Part shown: positions 2,983-54,697 of the stretch, piece by piece
Numbering within the stretch: the stretch's first letter is position 1
Layout: each line of letters begins with the position of its first letter
NCBI RefSeq assembly: GCF_016412875.1
Contig: NZ_JAEKPD010000009.1
Location: 124,001-188,000, forward strand
Length of the DNA stretch: 64,000 nucleotides
Direction: 5' to 3'
Source of the DNA: Palleronia pontilimi
GTDB lineage: Bacteria; Pseudomonadota; Alphaproteobacteria; Rhodobacterales; Rhodobacteraceae
The notes under the pieces: model-generated
Told to the model about the DNA's origin: nothing
What the model saw: only the letters and a program-made list of their open reading frames with translations
Database searches by the model: none
Position numbers and translations under genes: made by a program

Positions 2983-3130
2983 GCCATTCCCCGGGGCCCG
3001 ACCACGCTGCCGCCCATCCATAGCGCAAATTCCGGCGCGCGTAAGGCGCGGGCGGTGCCTTCGCGCTGGACCCTGTCCCACGCGCTGCCTATCAATCACG
3101 CGAACCGAAAGATCACGTTAAAGGCCGCCC

Positions 3131-5851
3131 ATGCCCCGCTATGACGCTTCCAAATCCGAGCCCTTCTGGCAGGACGCCTGGGCCAGGTCCGGCACCTTCA
3201 CCGCCCGCCGCGACGACGCCAAGCCGAAATACTACGTGCTCGAGATGTTTCCCTACCCGTCGGGCAACCTGCATATCGGCCACGTCCGCAACTACGCCAT
3301 GGGCGACGTGGTGGCGCGCTACAAGCTGGCCACGGGCCACGCCGTGCTGCACCCGATGGGATGGGACGCCTTCGGGCTTCCGGCCGAGAACGCGGCGATG
3401 GAGCGGGGCATCCACCCCGAAGGCTGGACCCGCGACAACATCGCCAACATGAAGGCGCAGTTCGCCCGGCTCGGCCTGTCGCTGGACTGGAGCCGCGAAT
3501 TCGCCACCTGCGATCCGGACTATTACGGCCACCAGCAATCCATGTTCATCGACTTCCTGGAAAAGGGACTGGTCTATCGCAAGAACGCGGTGGTGAACTG
3601 GGATCCCGTCGACATGACCGTTCTGGCCAACGAACAGGTCGAGGACGGGCGCGGCTGGCGCTCGGGCGCGCTGGTGGAACGGCGCGAGCTGACCCAGTGG
3701 TTCTTCAAGATCTCGGACTACTCGGACGAGCTGCTGTCGGCGCTGGATACGCTCGACAACTGGCCCGAGAAGGTCAAGACGATGCAGGCCAACTGGATCG
3801 GCAAGTCGCGCGGCCTGCAATTCGCCTTCGGGCTGGTGGACGCGCCCGAGGGCCACGACCGGATCGAGGTCTATACCACCCGCCCCGACACCTTGCTGGG
3901 CGCCAGCTTCGTCGGCATCTCGCCCGATCACCCGCTGGCCCGCCAGCTTGAACAGGACAACCCCGACCTGGCCGCCTTCAGCGCCGAGTGCCGCAAGATG
4001 GGCACCGCCGAGGAGGACCTGGAAAAGGCCGAAAAGCGCGGCTTCGACACCGGCCTGCGCGTGCGCCACCCGTTCGACACGGCGTGGGAGCTTCCGGTCT
4101 ATGTCGCCAACTTCATCCTGATGGATTACGGCACCGGCGCGATCTTCGGCTGCCCGGCCCACGACGCGCGCGACCTGGAATTCGCCCGCAAATACGGCCT
4201 GCCGGTCGTCTCGACCTTCGCGCCCGCCAAGGACGACGGCTCGGCCCTGCCCGAAGACGGCGGCGACGCCTACGTGCCGCCCAAGACGGAACCCGTGATC
4301 TACGTCCGCGGCTTCGCGGGCGACACCGAGCAGACCGGCAACGACGCCATCGACGCGGCCATCGCCTTTTGCGAGGAGAACGGCGTCGGGCGCGGCGTCA
4401 CCAAGTTCCGCCTGCGCGACTGGGGCCTGTCGCGGCAACGCTACTGGGGCTGCCCGATCCCGGTGGTCCATTGCGACGCTTGCGGCGTGGTGCCCGAGCG
4501 CAAGGAAAACCTGCCCGTCCGCCTGCCCGAGGACGTCAGCTTCGACATCCCCGGCAACCCGCTGGACCGCCACCCCACCTGGCGCGACACGCCCTGCCCC
4601 GCCTGCGGCAAGCCCGCCCGCCGCGAAACCGACACGATGGACACCTTCGTCGATTCGTCGTGGTACTACGCGCGCTTCACCTCGCCCGGCGCTGCGACGC
4701 CCACCGACCCGGACGAAGCGGCCTACTGGATGAATGTCGACCAGTATATCGGCGGCGTCGAGCACGCGATCCTGCACCTGCTCTATTCGCGCTTTTTCGC
4801 CCGCGCCATGAACGAATGCGGCCACCTGCCCGACAAAGCGCGCGAGCCGTTCGACGCGCTGTTCACGCAGGGGATGGTGACGCACGAGATTTATACCAAC
4901 AAGCTTTTCGGACCCGGCTATTCAGGAAAGAAAACAATACCGACCAATCCTGAAGCATCGGAGAAAGCGTGGATCAGGTCGTCGGTTGAAAAATTTTTCT
5001 TTCCCGAAGACGTCGTTTCGTTTTCACACGAAGGCAAGCGTATGGCCGTTCTCAAAGACACTCTCGAAGCAGCAGGAAGAGATCCTCAGAATATTGAGGA
5101 TCTCGTAGATCAGGAAAGAGAGGACGAAGAGACTGAATTAGGAGTTCTTGTAATCCCGTCGGCCAAGATGTCGAAGTCGAAGAAGAACGTCGTCGATCCC
5201 GGCACCATCATCGATCAGTACGGCGCCGACACCGCGCGGTGGTTCGTCCTTTCCGACAGCCCGCCCGAGCGCGACGTGGAATGGACCGCCGCGGGGGCCG
5301 AGGCCGCGTCCAAGCACCTGGGCCGCGTCTGGCGCATCGCCGAGGCCGCCAGCGACGCCCCCGACACCGGCAAGGGCGACGACGCGTTGCTGCGCGAGAT
5401 GCACAAGGCCATCCACGACGTGACCATGGGCATCGAATCCTTCGGCTTCAACACGTCCGTGGCCCGTCTCTATGCCTTCGCCAACGTGCTGCAGAAATCG
5501 CAGGCGGGCCGCGCCGCACGCACGCAAGCGGCGCGGACCATGGCGCAGCTCATGTCGCCCATGACCCCGCATCTGAGCGAAGAGATCTGGCGCCTGCTGG
5601 GCGGTGAGGGGCTGATCGCCAACGCCCCCTGGCCGCAGGCCGATCCCGCGATGCTGGTCGAAGACGAAGTGACCCTGCCGATCCAGGTGAACGGCAAGCG
5701 CCGCGCCGAAATCACGGTGCCCAAGGAGATGTCGAAAGAAGACGTCGAAGCCCGCGCCCTGGCGACGGACGCGGTGCAGAAGGCGTTGCAGGGCGGCTCG
5801 CCGAAAAAGGTGATCGTGGTGCCCGGACGGATCGTCAATGTGGTGGTCTAG
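3131..5851 (+). CDS. leuS: Leucyl-tRNA synthetase
   Basis: Charges tRNA-Leu with leucine in the cytoplasm. It is a class Ia synthetase of 906 residues. HIGH lies at residues 48-51 inside [15 protein letters not shown] and KMSKS at 679-683. The editing (CP1) domain carries [11 protein letters not shown] and [15 protein letters not shown] CxxC...CxxC zinc-ribbon (CDACG...CPACG) sits near 455-495. Residues about 588-676, just before KMSKS, are encoded by unusually AT-rich DNA (my count is 46% GC over 4921-5160 against about 75% in 5281-5340) and make the protein about 50 residues longer than I expect for this family. First gene of leuS-lptE-holA-GST; its stop overlaps the lptE start by 14 bp. 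Confidence 0.97.
4890..5160 (+). other. AT-rich in-frame segment in the leucine-specific domain region of leuS
   Basis: About 270 bp coding for LeuRS residues 588-676. GC falls to about 46% (110 of 240 bases, 4921-5160, hand count), with codons such as AAA, TTT, ATA, TTA and AGA that neighbouring genes avoid. It contains a perfect 10-bp inverted repeat, GAGATCCTCA at 5079-5088 and TGAGGATCTC at 5095-5104, and the 12-bp palindrome GAAAAATTTTTC at 4988-4999. Frame is kept into the conserved [12 protein letters not shown]. In bacterial LeuRS the leucine-specific insertion sits immediately before KMSKS, so this looks like a replaced or acquired insertion domain. Confidence 0.7.
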
Positions 5852-6377
5852 GCGCCCGCGCCTGCGTGTCCTCGCCGCGCTGGGCTTCCTGCTGGCCGCG
5901 TCCTGCGGCTTCACGCCGGTCTATGGCCCCGGCGGTGCGGCGCAGGGCCTTTACGGCGATATCGCCGTGGCCACCCCGTCCGACGTGGCGGGCTACCTGC
6001 TGGTCGAGCAGCTCGAGCGGCGTCTGGGCCAGCCCACGGGCGCGCCGCGCTACGATCTGACCGCCGATATCGCGCTCAGCGAAACCGGTCTGGGCATCAC
6101 GCCCGATCAGGAAACCACCCGCATCCGCCTGCTGGGGCGGCTCGACTACACGCTGACCGACGCCACCAGCGGCGCGCTTGCCAGGCGCGGCAGCGTGCAG
6201 AATTTCACCGCGTATTCCGCCCCGGTCTTCAGCGCCGCGCGCAACACGATCGCGGGCAACTCGGTCACCGTTCAGGCCGCCGAGGACGACGCCATCGCGC
6301 GGCTCATGGTGATCCTCGCGGACCAGCTGGTGGCCGAATTGCTGGCCACCGCACCCGACTGGCGCGCGGGCCCGTGA
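5838..6377 (+). CDS. lptE: LPS-assembly lipoprotein LptE
   Basis: Outer-membrane lipoprotein that plugs and helps assemble the LptD translocon for lipopolysaccharide export. It has 179 residues, with lipobox LAASC (Cys23) followed by GFTPVYG, the usual LptE N-terminal motif in alphaproteobacteria. Further support comes from its position between leuS and holA, a gene order conserved across proteobacteria. The ATG lies inside the end of leuS (14-bp overlap), and its stop overlaps the holA start by 4 bp, so the three are translationally coupled. Confidence 0.88.
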
Positions 6378-7396
6378 AGCTGAACAAGAACGACGCGACC
6401 GCCTGGATCGCCAAGCCGCCCGCGGATCGGCCCGGCACGCTGATCTACGGCGACGACGCCATGCGCGTCGCGCTGATTCGACAGGACCTGGTCGCCGCCC
6501 TGATCGGACCCAAGGGCGACGAGGAAATGCGCCTGACCCGCCTGCAGGCAGGCGATCTGAGCGGCGAGAAATCCGCCCTGTCGGATGCGCTGAAGGCCCA
6601 GGGCTTTTTTCCCGGCCCCCGCGCCGTGCTGGTCGAGGACGCGACCAACACCCACGCCAAGATCATCCTTGCCGCGCTCGAAGACTGGCAGTCGGGCGAC
6701 GCGCACATGGTCGTGGTCGGCCGCGCGCTTCCGAAGACCTCGCCCCTGCGCAAGGGCTTCGAGACGCATCCAAGGGCCGCCGCCATCGCCATCTACGACG
6801 AGCCCATGGGCGTGGCCGAGATGCGCGACGCGCTTGCCAAGGCGGGTCTGACCCGGATCGACCGCGACGCCGAAGGCGCGCTGCGATCGCTTGCCGCCGG
6901 GCTGGATCCCGGCGATTTCCGGCAACTGGTCGAAAAGCTGGCGCTCTACAAATCCGGCGACGACGCGCCGCTCGGGGAAGACGACGTGCGCGCCTGCGCG
7001 CCTGCCTCGACCGAGGCCGACATGGACGAAATCGTCGCCATCGTCGCCGATGGCCGCTCCGACCTGATCGGCCCCGTCATGCGCCGCCTGTGGTCGCAGG
7101 GCGCGCAGCCCGTCGCCTTGTGCATCGCCGCCCAGCGCCATTTCCGCACCCTTCTGACCGCCGCCAGCGATCCCGGCGGCGCGGGCGCGGGCGTGGGACG
7201 GCTGCGCCCGCCGGTCTTCGGGCCCCGCCGCGACGCGGTGCTGCGCCGGGCGCAGGGCTGGGGAGCGCCGCGGCTGGAACAGGCCATGCGGCTTCTGACC
7301 GACACCGACCTGACCCTGCGCTCGGCCAGCCGCGCGCCGCACATGGCGGTGCTGGAACGGGCCTTCATTCGCCTTGCCATGATGGGAAAACACTGA
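6374..7396 (+). CDS. holA: DNA polymerase III delta subunit
   Basis: Clamp-loader delta subunit, which opens the beta sliding clamp during replication. It has 340 residues, the usual length. The start is GTG at 6374 within a GTGA overlap with the lptE stop. The N-terminus [15 protein letters not shown], then LIYGDD, RLQAGDLSG and the later MRRLWSQGAQPVALCIAAQRHFRTLL match the alphaproteobacterial HolA pattern. The stop overlaps the next start as TGATG. Confidence 0.9.
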   Translation: MKLNKNDATAWIAKPPADRPGTLIYGDDAMRVALIRQDLVAALIGPKGDEEMRLTRLQAGDLSGEKSALSDALKAQGFFPGPRAVLVEDATNTHAKIILAALEDWQSGDAHMVVVGRALPKTSPLRKGFETHPRAAAIAIYDEPMGVAEMRDALAKAGLTRIDRDAEGALRSLAAGLDPGDFRQLVEKLALYKSGDDAPLGEDDVRACAPASTEADMDEIVAIVADGRSDLIGPVMRRLWSQGAQPVALCIAAQRHFRTLLTAASDPGGAGAGVGRLRPPVFGPRRDAVLRRAQGWGAPRLEQAMRLLTDTDLTLRSASRAPHMAVLERAFIRLAMMGKH

Positions 7397-50944: not shown

Positions 50945-51041
50945 CCGGCGCCTGCCCCGCGCGCGCGGGCCCCCTGACGCGGGCCGCGGTTGACTTGGCC
51001 CCGGCCCCGCGCCTAGCTGAGCCGTGAAACAGGAGGCCGCC

Positions 51042-51644
51042 ATGCACGACCGCACCCACGCCCTGATCGTCATCGACATGCAGAACGATTTCTGCCCCGG
51101 CGGCGCGCTGGCCGTCGCGGGCGGCGATGCCATCGTCGCGCCGATCAACGCGCTGATGGACGATTTCGCCACCGTGATCCTGACCCAGGACTGGCACCCG
51201 GCGGGCCATTCGTCCTTCGCGTCATCGCATCCCGGTCACTCGCCCATGACCATGATCGACATGCCCTACGGACCCCAGGTCCTGTGGCCCGACCATTGCA
51301 TCCAAGGCTCGAAGGGCGCGCGGTTCCATCCCGACCTGCGCACCGATGGCGACCTCATCATCCGCAAGGGCTTCAACCCCGCCATCGACAGCTATTCGGC
51401 GTTTTTCGAGAACGACCACGCCACGCCCACCGGGCTCGAAGGCTATCTGCGCACGCGCGGCATCACCACGCTGACCATGGTGGGCCTGGCGCTGGATTTC
51501 TGCGTGAACTACTCGGCGGTGGACGGCGCGAAGCTGGGCTTCGACGTCACCGTCCGGCCCGATCTCAGCCGCGCCATCGACCTCGATGGATCGGAAAAAG
51601 CGGCGCTGGACGGCATGAAGAACGCGGGCGTCACGCTCGCCTGA
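51042..51644 (+). CDS. pncA: Nicotinamidase (isochorismatase-like hydrolase)
   Basis: A 200-residue cysteine hydrolase that converts nicotinamide to nicotinate in NAD salvage. The triad is Asp12 (VIDMQNDF), Lys in IIRKGFNPAIDSYSAF and Cys in GLALDFCVNYSA. The metal site is DWHPAGHSSFA. RBS AGGAGG before ATG 51042. It overlaps the EamA gene by 1 bp, so it heads a five-gene run whose later genes are not NAD-related. Confidence 0.93.
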   Translation: MHDRTHALIVIDMQNDFCPGGALAVAGGDAIVAPINALMDDFATVILTQDWHPAGHSSFASSHPGHSPMTMIDMPYGPQVLWPDHCIQGSKGARFHPDLRTDGDLIIRKGFNPAIDSYSAFFENDHATPTGLEGYLRTRGITTLTMVGLALDFCVNYSAVDGAKLGFDVTVRPDLSRAIDLDGSEKAALDGMKNAGVTLA

Positions 51645-52516
51645 TGGACGCCCGCGCGCTCTTGCTGGGCCTCGCCTTCGCGGTGATGTGGTCCAGCGCC
51701 TTCACCTCGGCCAAGTTCATCGTCGCCGACGCGCCGCCGCTGACAGCACTGGCCTTCCGCTTCGCGCTGTCGGGCGCGCTGGCCGTCGGCATCGCCTGCG
51801 CCCTGGGCCAGTCCTGGCGGCTGACCCGCACCCAGTGGCGGCTGACCTTCCTCTTCGGCCTCTGCCAGAACGCGCTGTACCTGGGGCTGAACTTCATCGC
51901 CATGCGCAGCATCGACGCGGGCCTCGCGTCGATCATCGCGTCCACCATGCCGCTTCTGGTGGCCTTCACCGGCTGGACGCTGCTGGGCGAGCGGTTGCAG
52001 ACCAGCGCCATCGCGGGGCTCTTCGCCGGGCTGGCGGGGGTCACGCTGATCATGGGCAGCCGCATCTCGGGCGGGGTCGATCCGCAGGGGCTGGCTTTGT
52101 GCATCGCCGGCGTGCTGGCGCTGACGCTGGCCACGCTCACGCTGCGCGGCGCGTCGTCTGGCGGCAACGTGCTGATGGTCGTGGGCCTGCAGATGCTGGT
52201 CGGATCGGCGCTTCTGGCTGTCGCCGCGCTGATGCTCGAGCGCTGGCAGGTCGATTGGTCGATCCCGCTGGCCGTCGCCTTCTTCTACACGACGCTGGTG
52301 CCGGGCCTTGCCGCGACGCTGACCTGGTTCGTGCTGGTGCGCCGCATCGGCCCCACCCGCGCGGCAACCTTCCACTTCCTCAACCCGTTTTTGGGCGTCG
52401 CCATCGCCGCCGCCGTCCTGGGCGAGCGGATCGGCCCGCTGGACGTGCTCGGTGTCGCCATCATCATGGTCGGAATCCTGGCCGTCCAGCTGTCGAAAGC
52501 GCAGGCCCCCGCTTGA
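51644..52516 (+). CDS. EamA-family (DMT) exporter
   Basis: A 290-residue inner-membrane protein with ten hydrophobic helices in two EamA repeats (LGLAFAVMWSSAFTSAKFIV ... and LCIAGVLALTLATLTLRG ... VLGERIGPLDVLGVAIIMVGI). Such transporters export amino acids and metabolites. Coupled to pncA by TGATG and 31 bp before the PLP-lyase gene. The substrate may be an intermediate or toxic analogue linked to the downstream enzymes. Confidence 0.88.
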   Translation: MDARALLLGLAFAVMWSSAFTSAKFIVADAPPLTALAFRFALSGALAVGIACALGQSWRLTRTQWRLTFLFGLCQNALYLGLNFIAMRSIDAGLASIIASTMPLLVAFTGWTLLGERLQTSAIAGLFAGLAGVTLIMGSRISGGVDPQGLALCIAGVLALTLATLTLRGASSGGNVLMVVGLQMLVGSALLAVAALMLERWQVDWSIPLAVAFFYTTLVPGLAATLTWFVLVRRIGPTRAATFHFLNPFLGVAIAAAVLGERIGPLDVLGVAIIMVGILAVQLSKAQAPA

Positions 52517-52547
52517 CCGGCGCGCCCATTGCGCGTCGAGTGAAGGC

Positions 52548-53570
52548 ATGGAGATCCTTGAAAACCCGTTCCGAGGCTACGGCCTCGACCATCCCGATCT
52601 CGGCGACATGCCGTGGCCCAGCGTCGACGCCGCCCGCGCCGCCGCGCTGACCCGCCGCTGCCCGCGTCACGCCGAAACGCGGCTGCGCTGCTCCCCGGCA
52701 CTTGCCTCCCGGATCGGCATCGGCGCGCTGCACCTGAAAGACGAACGCGACCGGATGGGCCTTGGCAGCTTCAAGGCGCTGGGCGCGGCCTATGTCATCG
52801 CGCAGCACGCCCAAGGAGGCCAGGCGAAGGGGCGCACCTACGTCACCGCCAGCGCGGGCAATCACGGCCTGTCGGTCGCGGCGGGCGCGCAGGCATTCGG
52901 AGCCCACGCGGTGATCTACCTGGCCGACACCGTGCCCGAAGCCTTCGCGGACCGGCTGCGCGGGCTGGGCGCCCAGGTGGTGCGCGCGGGCGCGGTCTAC
53001 GAGCAGTCGATGGAAGCCGCGGCCGAAGCCGCCACGGCCAGCGGAGACACGCTGCTCTCCGACAGCTCGTGGCCCGGATACGCCGAGCTGCCGCACCTGC
53101 TGATGGAGGGATACCTGGTGATGATGTCCGAGGCCATCGACCAGATGCCCGCGCCGCCCTCGCACATCTTCCTGCAGGCGGGCGTCGGCGGCCTGGCGGC
53201 ATCGACGGCGACGCTGGCGCGTGCGGCCTGGGGCGACACGCCCCGGGTCATCGTGGTCGAACCCGATGCCGCCCCCGCCCTGCACGGCTCGATCGCGGCG
53301 GGGGAGCCCACGCAATCGCAGGGTCCCGCGTCGGCCATGGGACGGCTGGACTGCAAGATGCCGTCGCTCATCGCGCTGAAGGGTCTCGCCCGCGACGCCG
53401 ACGCCTTCGCCCTGATCTCGGAAGCCGAATGCGCCAACGCCGCCTACACCGCCGCCGAGCAATCGCTGCCCACGACACCCTCGGGCGCGGCCGGTCTGGC
53501 GGGTGCGCTGGCGATGGATCCCGATCCGGGCGCCCGCGTGCTCTGCATCCTCAGCGAAGGCCCCGAATGA
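52548..53570 (+). CDS. PLP-dependent lyase, diaminopropionate ammonia-lyase-like
   Basis: A 340-residue fold-type II PLP enzyme. The PLP Lys76 is in GLGSFKALGAAYV, the phosphate/Asn loop is TASAGNHGLSVAAGAQAFGA, and SSWPGYAELPHLLMEGYLVM together with AGVGGLAAS match diaminopropionate ammonia-lyases. It is about 60 residues shorter than E. coli DpaL. It could act on another alpha,beta-diamino or hydroxyamino acid. Coupled by ATGA to the M24 gene. Confidence 0.78.
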   Translation: MEILENPFRGYGLDHPDLGDMPWPSVDAARAAALTRRCPRHAETRLRCSPALASRIGIGALHLKDERDRMGLGSFKALGAAYVIAQHAQGGQAKGRTYVTASAGNHGLSVAAGAQAFGAHAVIYLADTVPEAFADRLRGLGAQVVRAGAVYEQSMEAAAEAATASGDTLLSDSSWPGYAELPHLLMEGYLVMMSEAIDQMPAPPSHIFLQAGVGGLAASTATLARAAWGDTPRVIVVEPDAAPALHGSIAAGEPTQSQGPASAMGRLDCKMPSLIALKGLARDADAFALISEAECANAAYTAAEQSLPTTPSGAAGLAGALAMDPDPGARVLCILSEGPE

Positions 53571-54697
53571 CACCGCGCGGCTTCGCGCCGGACGAAATCC
53601 GCGCCCGCGCCACCGCCGCGCAAGACCTGATGGCCCGGGCACGGATCGACGCGCTTCTGCTGACCACCGAGCCCGAAATCCGCTACTTCACCGGCTTCCT
53701 CACCCGGTTCTGGGAAAGTCCCACGCGCCCCTGGTTCGTGGTGCTGCCGCAAGGCGGCGATCCCATCGCCGTCATCCCGTCCATCGGGGCCGAGCTGATG
53801 GCGCGCGCGGGTGTCAACGACATCCGCACCTGGCCCTCGCCGCGCCCCGGCGACGACGGCACCACCCTTCTGGCCGCGACGCTGAACGCGCACGGCCCGC
53901 GCATCGGCCTGCCCATGGGCGACGAGACCCACCTGCGGATGCCGCTGGCCCAGTTCGACGCGCTGCGCGGCCTGTGCCCGGCGCTGGACTTCACCCATGA
54001 CGCAGGCATCACCCGCACCCTGCGGATGGTGAAATCCGACGCCGAGATCGCCAAGATCGCCACCGCCTGCGCCATCGCCGACCGCGCCTTCGCCCGCGTG
54101 CCGGACATCGCCGCACCCGGCGTGCCGCTCGCGACCGTGTTCCGCGACTTCCAGGCGCTGTGCCTGGCCGAAGGCGCCGATACGGTGCCCTACCTGGCGG
54201 GCGCTGCGGGACAAGGTGGCTACGACGACGTCATCTCGCCCGCCACCGACGCGCCCCTGATGCCAGGCGACGTGCTCATGCTCGATACCGGGCTGACCTT
54301 CGACGGCTATTTCTGCGATTTCGACCGCAACTTCGCGCTGGGCGACACCGGCCTGGACGCCGATCACGACCGCCTGGTCGCGGCCGTCGAGGCGGGCCGC
54401 GCCGCTGCCATGCCCGGCGCGCGGGCCAGCGACGTCCACGCGGCCATGCGCGCCGCCGAAGCGCCCGCCCCCGGCGCGGCCGTGCGCCTGGGGCATGGCC
54501 TGGGGATGCAGCTGACCGAATGGCCGTCACTGTCGCCCTTCGACCAGACGGTGTTGCAAGCGGGGATGGTCCTGACGCTGGAGCCTTGCGTAGCGACGGA
54601 AGCGGGCCGGATCCTGGTGCTCGAGGAAAACATCGTCCTGACCGAAACCGGCAACCGGGCCTTGTCGACGCCCGCGACACGGATGGTGCGCCTATGA
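53567..54697 (+). CDS. M24-family metallohydrolase (aminopeptidase P / creatinase / ectoine-hydrolase type)
   Basis: A 376-residue pita-bread enzyme. The N-terminal creatinase-like domain has LLLTTEPEIRYFTGFLTRFWESPTRPWFVVLP. The C-terminal domain carries all five metal ligands: MLDTGLTF and FCDFDRNF (Asp), GHGLGMQ (His), LEPCV and LEENIV (Glu). Substrate unknown. Some family members (DoeA/EutD) open ectoine, and the neighbours here echo that pathway. Overlaps both neighbours by 4 bp. Confidence 0.85.
   Translation: MTPRGFAPDEIRARATAAQDLMARARIDALLLTTEPEIRYFTGFLTRFWESPTRPWFVVLPQGGDPIAVIPSIGAELMARAGVNDIRTWPSPRPGDDGTTLLAATLNAHGPRIGLPMGDETHLRMPLAQFDALRGLCPALDFTHDAGITRTLRMVKSDAEIAKIATACAIADRAFARVPDIAAPGVPLATVFRDFQALCLAEGADTVPYLAGAAGQGGYDDVISPATDAPLMPGDVLMLDTGLTFDGYFCDFDRNFALGDTGLDADHDRLVAAVEAGRAAAMPGARASDVHAAMRAAEAPAPGAAVRLGHGLGMQLTEWPSLSPFDQTVLQAGMVLTLEPCVATEAGRILVLEENIVLTETGNRALSTPATRMVRL

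What the first reader, a model, noticed from the sequence alone, without database searches (positions are those of the whole stretch)
4890..5160. Foreign-looking, palindrome-bearing segment inside LeuRS just before KMSKS
Seen: in a gene of about 70% GC, 240 bases (4921-5160) count to 46% GC with codons rare in neighbours, and contain a perfect 10-bp inverted repeat (5079-5088/5095-5104) and a 12-bp palindrome (4988-4999). The frame continues into KMSKS, and the protein is about 50 residues longer than I expect for the family. Known: the leucine-specific domain sits at this place and contacts tRNA-Leu. Inference: domain replacement by transfer, or an in-frame selfish palindromic insert as in Rickettsia. 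It might also give resistance to a LeuRS-directed antibiotic.
Basis: partly seen in the sequence, partly recalled or inferred. Interest (0 to 1): 0.7.

Follow-up and report, generated by a model that had tools for sequence, protein, structure and literature searches.

The report
Swapped domain in an essential tRNA-charging enzyme
One small domain of the essential enzyme that loads leucine onto its tRNA has been replaced by a longer, foreign-looking version here, and the same domain is repeatedly exchanged among related bacteria while the rest of the enzyme stays nearly unchanged.

Summary
The LeuRS gene (window 3131-5851) has a 98-residue leucine-specific (LS) domain before KMSKS, against 42 in its two nearest relatives; GC3 is 0.46 there and 0.91 in the flanks. 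The genome is a Palleronia-type Rhodobacteraceae. This proved family-wide. Of 143 readable LeuRS genes chosen without using the LS domain, 19 are long (>=57 aa); of 56 from other alphaproteobacterial families, none. Three Celeribacter with LeuRS 97-98.5% identical outside the domain carry LS domains only 11-30% identical. Most scattered long forms are poor in G/C-ending codons whatever the host, with borders sharp to a few codons. The window's C-terminal module is homologous to those of other genera: a module family is being swapped. tRNA-Leu acceptor and D arms are unchanged in the Celeribacter trio, arguing against co-evolution. One copy in the genome speaks against a Rickettsia-type element. 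Best reading: repeated import of the LS domain as an exchangeable unit; no donor was found. Selection to escape an agent touching this face of LeuRS is plausible but untested.

The parts
3131..5851 (+). leuS, leucyl-tRNA synthetase, 906 aa
   Evidence: Pfam editing domain PF13603 (E 5e-54), tRNA-synt_1, Anticodon_1; PDB LeuRS matches to E 3e-242; Foldseek of the model, best hit N. gonorrhoeae LeuRS
4871..5164 (+). leucine-specific (LS) domain region, GMVTHEIY...PSA, 98 aa (residues 581-678), scattered long type
   Evidence: of 13 same-genus relatives seen, 12 have 41-47 aa here and G003 has 81
4889..5152 (+). stretch of foreign-like codon use (residues 587-674)
   Evidence: borders taken from codon-by-codon GC-ending frequencies of 41 scattered long genes; in this gene GC3 of the LS domain is 0.46 below the flanks
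4895..4984 (+). N-terminal variable module, residues 589-618, mostly predicted disordered
   Evidence: AF2 pLDDT <50 over 593-606 and 608-618
5015..5155 (+). C-terminal variable module, residues 629-675: two strands, two helices, end strand
   Evidence: AF2 E628-633 E636-641 H642-647 H655-667 E672-680; block pLDDT 64-93 in the full model, 86-95 in the LS-only model; leave-one-out profile score 24.3 bits against at most 8.2 in 500 shuffles
5165..5179 (+). KMSKS signature loop (conserved right border)
   Evidence: invariant in the 74-sequence alignment A3
5079..5104 (+). 10-bp perfect hairpin with 6-nt loop; isolated
   Evidence: among 54 other long forms only L117 has an arm of 9 bp or more
4988..4999 (+). 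12-bp palindrome GAAAAATTTTTC in AT-rich DNA; no sign of function

Best explanation
The segment is the LS domain of an otherwise normal, essential LeuRS. In this lineage the short LS domain was replaced, as a unit, by a long form from a diverse family of LS modules that I found only in Rhodobacteraceae. SHOWN: long and short forms occur within the genus; most long modules tested are homologous across genera; sister species carry unrelated or short forms; composition of the scattered long forms is decoupled from the host; borders are sharp. INFERRED: recombination with imported leuS DNA, crossing over in or near the conserved blocks on either side ([14 protein letters not shown] and [15 protein letters not shown]), made the swaps. 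INFERRED: the new domain still does the LS job of buttressing the mobile KMSKS loop and guiding tRNA-Leu, with a two-helix extension before the last strand. INFERRED and weakest (about 0.35): turnover is favoured because changing this exposed face frees LeuRS from a toxin, antibiotic or phage factor that touches it; permissive drift is the alternative.
For: Nearest relatives (90% identical flanks) have 42 aa, 13-14% identical in the domain. Celeribacter trio: flanks 97.2-98.5% identical, LS domains 84/78/46 aa and 11-30% identical. Like pairs: Aliiroseovarius (97.8%), Litoreibacter (96.2%), Roseivivax (90.6%); in Litoreibacter the 60 bases just upstream differ at 20 positions against 6 in the next bin, as an imported tract would. 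LS GC3 against flank GC3: short n=187 slope 1.04, r 0.85, 3 more than 0.15 below; scattered long n=41 slope 0.31, r 0.25, mean -0.25, 33 more than 0.15 below; stable long n=14 slope 1.09, none. At like flank identity (bins 0.75 and 0.80) mean LS identity is 0.53-0.58 for short, 0.69-0.73 for stable long and 0.24-0.29 for scattered long pairs. Long/short changes at least 42 times on a flank tree of 242 rows with 55 long; shuffled labels 49.8 on average, minimum 43 of 200. Leave-one-out profiles recognise 13 of the 14 long modules tested (of 32) above all of 500 shuffles. Conserved Ile-7 of GMVTHEIY has A/T-ending codons in 17 of 38 scattered-long against 36 of 177 short genes, p=0.003. No other gene among those inspected in 10% of the genome shows it.
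Against: No donor found: the 85-aa segment has no relative in plasmids, phages, viral contigs or genome contigs, and its closest known module (G003, same genus) is 35% identical. Over 44 long genes, fourfold-site divergence in the flanks is not raised except slightly in the 30 codons just upstream (-0.011 +- 0.023 against -0.073 +- 0.013 in 100 controls), so crossovers would mostly lie very close to the domain. In Celeribacter the adjoining 60-base bins differ at only 2-6 positions; a more diverged stretch 60-480 bases downstream in C. ethanolicus (up to 13 per 60) may be a tract or just a less conserved region. AT-richer hosts too have long forms AT-richer than themselves (e.g. 0.39 against 0.65), which a simple low-GC donor within the family does not explain. 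Eight of 41 scattered forms are not strongly low in GC3. Tyr-8 codons differ less clearly (p=0.08) and module L249 was not clearly recognised (3 of 500 shuffles as good). A FastTree tree of one gene can inflate changes. Nothing here tests selection or function.
Confidence: 0.7

Rival explanations
1. In-place hyper-divergence: no import; the LS domain is nearly free of constraint in this family, so it grows, shrinks and mutates fast toward an AT-rich equilibrium.
For: No donor; compositional change stops within a few codons of the domain; no general rise of divergence in flanks.
Against: Celeribacter flanks differ at about 6-10% of bases while the domain is wholly different; 13 of 14 tested modules are homologous to those of other genomes; the segment (46% GC) is far below even non-gene DNA of this genome (63%); short and stable-long forms keep host codon use.
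Confidence: 0.17
2. Arms-race module (a cause, compatible with import): the domain is swapped because an antibiotic, toxin or phage protein acts on the LS/KMSKS face; new forms block it.
For: Fast turnover seen only in Rhodobacteraceae: 0 of 56 readable LeuRS from other alphaproteobacterial families are long. LS grafting into an AgnB2 triple mutant raised TM84 sensitivity (PMC5059758, passages).
Against: No agent is known here; linked immunity or biosynthesis genes were not sought systematically; AgnB2 lacks the domain rather than lengthening it; grafting it into wild-type AgnB2 changed nothing and H. pylori LeuRS without it is still inhibited.
Confidence: 0.35
3. Co-evolution with tRNA-Leu: the LS domain changes to fit changed tRNAs.
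For: The LS domain lies near the tRNA D-loop base and helps bind tRNA-Leu (PMC6588880 section 9; PMC5059758 passages).
Against: In the Celeribacter trio all five tRNA-Leu have identical acceptor stems and D arms; the few differences lie in the anticodon, variable and T arms, and tRNA-Ser varies at least as much. Only this trio was tested.
Confidence: 0.04
4. In-frame selfish palindromic element (Rickettsia-type).
For: A 10-bp hairpin and a 12-bp palindrome inside the segment.
Against: Single copy in the genome; it replaces the domain; hairpins of this size are not shared; a homologous module with a confident core model.
Confidence: 0.02

Closest known systems
LS domain of bacterial LeuRS, LS1 topology (E. 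coli) and LS2 topology (T. thermophilus)
   Same: Same place before KMSKS; beta-rich plan in the model; a helix before the last strand recalls LS2, where ECOD describes a helix between strands 4 and 5 near the tRNA D-loop (PMC6588880 section 9).
   Different: 98 aa; two-helix insert plus a disordered N-terminal part; differs wholly between sister species; the LS-only model has no PDB match with E below 0.86.
AgnB2, plasmid-borne self-immunity LeuRS for agrocin 84, and H. pylori LeuRS
   Same: LeuRS whose LS region departs strongly from the norm.
   Different: Those lack the domain (PMC5059758); here it is enlarged, KMSKS is intact, and the gene looks like the normal single leuS.
Rickettsia palindromic elements (recalled)
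   Same: In-frame, palindrome-bearing, in a housekeeping protein.
   Different: No second copy in the genome; domain replacement rather than insertion.
Recombining hypervariable modules of surface proteins and restriction specificity subunits (recalled)
   Same: Sharp-edged exchange of a variable segment between conserved blocks.
   Different: Here in an essential cytoplasmic housekeeping enzyme.

Membership tests
Bacterial-type LeuRS | Catalytic, CP1 editing and anticodon-binding domains, KMSKS motif | tested here: met
LS domain of LeuRS | Lies directly N-terminal to KMSKS, between conserved GMVTH and PSA blocks | tested here: met
LS domain of LeuRS | Sheet of strands 1, 2 and 5 with a hairpin of strands 3 and 4 | tested here: inconclusive
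   Strands and order fit in the AF2 model, but no superposition was run and Foldseek of the domain alone found nothing
LS2 topology | Extra helix in the later inter-strand region, near the tRNA D-loop base | tested here: inconclusive
   Helices 642-647 and 655-667 before the last strand; the A2 profile matches no LeuRS chain in the PDB up to E 10
AgnB2-type immunity LeuRS | LS domain missing, KQSKS loop | tested here: not met
   98-aa LS region and KMSKS
Rickettsia palindromic element | Several related copies across genes of one genome | tested here: not met
   one match in the genome
Horizontally exchanged module | Distribution at odds with the flanking gene, foreign composition, homologous copies elsewhere | tested here: met
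Horizontally exchanged module | Identified donor or near-identical copy in another lineage | tested here: not met

The most novel reading that the evidence does not exclude
Rhodobacteraceae keep a diverse pool of LS modules that is shuffled into the essential LeuRS gene under antagonistic selection: an essential tRNA synthetase with an antigen-like hypervariable domain, pointing to an unknown agent in their habitats that attacks LeuRS through this face.
Probability: 0.3. Interest if true: 0.85.

Novelty: new variant of a known kind. Interest (0 to 1): 0.62.

Why it matters
Variation of the LS domain is known between distant bacteria, and its function is called unclear in PMC6588880 (section 9). 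Finding it wholly different between species whose LeuRS is otherwise 97-98% identical gives natural chimeras that isolate this domain, so its role becomes directly testable. It also suggests that LeuRS is under attack, or unusually free, at this face in one large bacterial family. I found no report of such swapping in the searches. I saw their listings, plus passages and single sections of three papers (PMC5059758, PMC6588880, PMC9424281); the library lacks most subscription papers.

Tried and rejected
Donor search with the segment as protein in genome contigs, viral contigs, plasmids and phages: nothing; the wider LeuRS stretch in viral contigs: nothing confirmed. Long-LS profile A2 in 385 genomes of the class: this genome plus one 24-position match in a 172-codon frame at E 0.0025, too short a frame for LeuRS. 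A2 against the PDB: no LeuRS, best E 0.08. Shared RNA structure in long forms: mean z -0.18 over 55, 5 below -2, the window's own -2.04. A general rise of flank divergence as a sign of long imported tracts: not found, with the exceptions told under evidence. In one search far-upstream counts for Roseivivax and for Palleronia G000/G007 jump to about 40 per 60, which I take for misalignment by an indel, and were not used. Plasmid leuS of Cereibacter: ordinary leuS-lptE-delta order on a replicon.

Counts and their limits. First totals were corrected on recount: a looser reading gave 20 of 143 long forms because one start was misread; the stricter gives 19 of 143 (window's own included; 1 of 144 loci, L182, unreadable). 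The 144 loci come from the listed rows, best flank matches first, of 377 matching genomes among 394, and leave out a few rows already held or on short contigs. My notebook's 33 of 80 named long forms is 32 of 80; those 80 loci were found with a query that includes the LS domain, so that fraction is inflated. Other families: 18 of 24 genomes had two readable pieces (39-48 aa) and 40 of 45 (41-47 aa), 56 distinct genomes together. 'Stable' long forms (14) were set apart by ad hoc motifs and lengths; 262 records, 6 dropped as too short, 14 duplicates, 242 used.

Full report
What is there. Window 3131-5851 (+) encodes a 906-aa leucyl-tRNA synthetase. The two ORFs after it (5838-6377 and 6374-7396) fit by position the leuS-lptE-DNA polymerase III delta order annotated in Cereibacter; I did not search them. 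Between the conserved blocks GMVTH and PSA-KMSKS lie 98 residues (4871-5164), the leucine-specific (LS) domain region. Bases 4901-5157 have GC1/2/3 of 0.59/0.37/0.42 against 0.68/0.48/0.86 in gene proxies of this genome and 0.63 GC in non-gene DNA. In 370 kb (about 10%) of the genome LeuRS ranks second of 242 ORFs for an internal GC3 drop; the first and four others inspected with Pfam have their low part outside the recognised domain and are probably false extensions.

Which organism. One search drew 60 relatives, 13 of the same genus. One of these, G012, has its LeuRS on a contig of 321,249 bases at the place where the Palleronia marisminoris CECT 7066 contig of the same length has it, so the window is taken as a Palleronia-type Rhodobacteraceae.

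Relatives. Of the 13 same-genus genomes, 12 have LS regions of 41-47 aa and one (G003) has 81. The two nearest, G007 and G013, are 90% identical outside the domain and have 42 aa. To estimate frequency I searched 394 family genomes with the 100 residues upstream of the domain only (377 matched) and took 144 loci from the listed rows: 143 could be read and 19 are long (>=57 aa), the window's own included. In other alphaproteobacterial families none is long: 18 readable of 24 genomes have 39-48 aa and 40 readable of 45 in two families have 41-47 aa, 56 distinct genomes. A profile of long forms, built from some of them, matched 20 of 394 family genomes at E below 1e-6 and nothing convincing elsewhere in 385 genomes of the class. 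Hypervariability is thus a feature of Rhodobacteraceae in this sample.

Two kinds of long form. Fourteen genes of Tabrizicola, Cypionkella, Pseudorhodobacter, Xinfangfangia and unnamed relatives have a conserved 71-72 aa form with host-like codons. Forty-one are scattered, mutually very different and mostly poor in G/C-ending codons. For short forms LS GC3 follows flank GC3 (n=187, slope 1.04, r 0.85; 3 more than 0.15 below); for stable long ones likewise (n=14, slope 1.09); for scattered long ones it hardly does (n=41, slope 0.31, r 0.25, mean difference -0.25; 33 more than 0.15 below, 8 not). Codon by codon, the change starts at about Ile-7/Tyr-8 of GMVTHEIY and ends about five codons before KMSKS. 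The near-invariant Ile-7 has A/T-ending codons in 17 of 38 scattered-long against 36 of 177 short genes (Fisher p 0.003; Tyr-8 p 0.08), as expected if an imported piece often begins there.

Turnover. On a FastTree tree of the flanks (242 genes, 55 long) long/short changes at least 42 times; shuffled labels give 49.8 on average and never fewer than 43 in 200 trials. The clearest cases are sister species: Celeribacter sp. HF31 (84 aa), C. ethanolicus (78) and C. naphthalenivorans (46) are 97.2-98.5% identical outside the domain and 11-30% inside. Pairs in Aliiroseovarius, Litoreibacter, Roseivivax and Palleronia show the same. Nucleotide differences beside the domain in Celeribacter are 2-6 per 60 bases, like the gene average (145 of 2340 for HF31 against naphthalenivorans); C. 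ethanolicus has a more diverged stretch 60-480 bases downstream, and in Litoreibacter the 60 bases just upstream differ at 20 positions, so tracts may sometimes run beyond the domain. At equal flank identity (bins 0.75 and 0.80), LS identity averages 0.53-0.58 for short, 0.69-0.73 for stable long and 0.24-0.29 for scattered long pairs.

Are scattered long forms related to each other? Most of those tested are. Leave-one-out profiles of the C-terminal module, trained on 28 others with the same-genus module left out, score the window's module 24.3 bits against at most 8.2 in 500 shuffles. I tested 14 of 32 modules: 13 beat all shuffles, L249 does not (3 of 500 as good). So they are mostly members of one diverged family rather than random sequence. 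N- and C-terminal halves vary separately: by a simple length cut 15 genes have both long, 17 only the C-terminal and 9 only the N-terminal.

Structure. AlphaFold2 with 74 sequences (mean pLDDT 85.2) gives strands 620-623, 628-633 and 636-641, helices 642-647 and 655-667, and strand 672-680, with block pLDDT 75-93 over 621-670 and 64 over 671-680; 593-606 and 608-618 are below 50. The domain alone folds alike, with blocks 51-100 at 86-95, and has no PDB match with E below 0.86. ECOD describes two LS topologies, calls the function unclear because of variability, and puts an LS2 helix near the tRNA D-loop base (PMC6588880, section 9 read). The LS domain moves with KMSKS during catalysis (PMC9424281, passages).

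Mechanism. I take exchange of the domain as a unit as well supported and import of foreign leuS DNA, with crossovers in or near the flanking conserved blocks, as the likeliest route. Two GTA_TIM genes in this genome offer a possible vehicle, a gene transfer agent, though such genes are said to be well conserved in Rhodobacterales (PMC9836097, abstract start in a listing) and prove nothing here. No donor was found. The driver is open. tRNA co-evolution is unlikely: all five tRNA-Leu of the Celeribacter trio share acceptor stems and D arms. An outside agent is plausible because grafting an LS domain onto an AgnB2 triple mutant raised TM84 sensitivity; against it, grafting onto wild-type AgnB2 had no effect and H. 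pylori LeuRS without the domain was still inhibited (PMC5059758, passages). Permissive drift remains possible.

Verdict. Real and not an assembly artefact, since long forms recur in independent named genomes. The LS domain is known; its rapid, sharp-edged swapping inside an essential enzyme was not found in the library searched.

Noticed in passing
window 3113-4885, minus strand: A 590-codon antisense ORF lies opposite leuS; with such high GC this is probably a by-product of codon use and not a gene.
   Followed up: no
L250, L255, L263, L267, L271 and similar: A conserved 71-72 aa LS form with host-like codons in Tabrizicola, Cypionkella, Pseudorhodobacter and Xinfangfangia; perhaps a scattered form that became fixed and ameliorated.
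   Followed up: partly
L077, L191, L196, L198, L306, L322: Long forms in which only the N-terminal half of the LS domain is enlarged while the C-terminal half looks standard, so the halves can change separately.
   Followed up: partly
L343, L344 (G000:C17 and C12): Two separate GTA_TIM genes, suggesting two gene-transfer-agent or related clusters in one genome.
   Followed up: no
L412 (Cereibacter azotoformans plasmid pORIO5): The leuS-lptE-DNA polymerase III delta genes sit on a 104-kb extrachromosomal replicon.
   Followed up: no
window 51017-54694: Two neighbouring stop-to-stop frames contain 80-codon stretches of low GC3 (0.44-0.46); not examined further.
   Followed up: no
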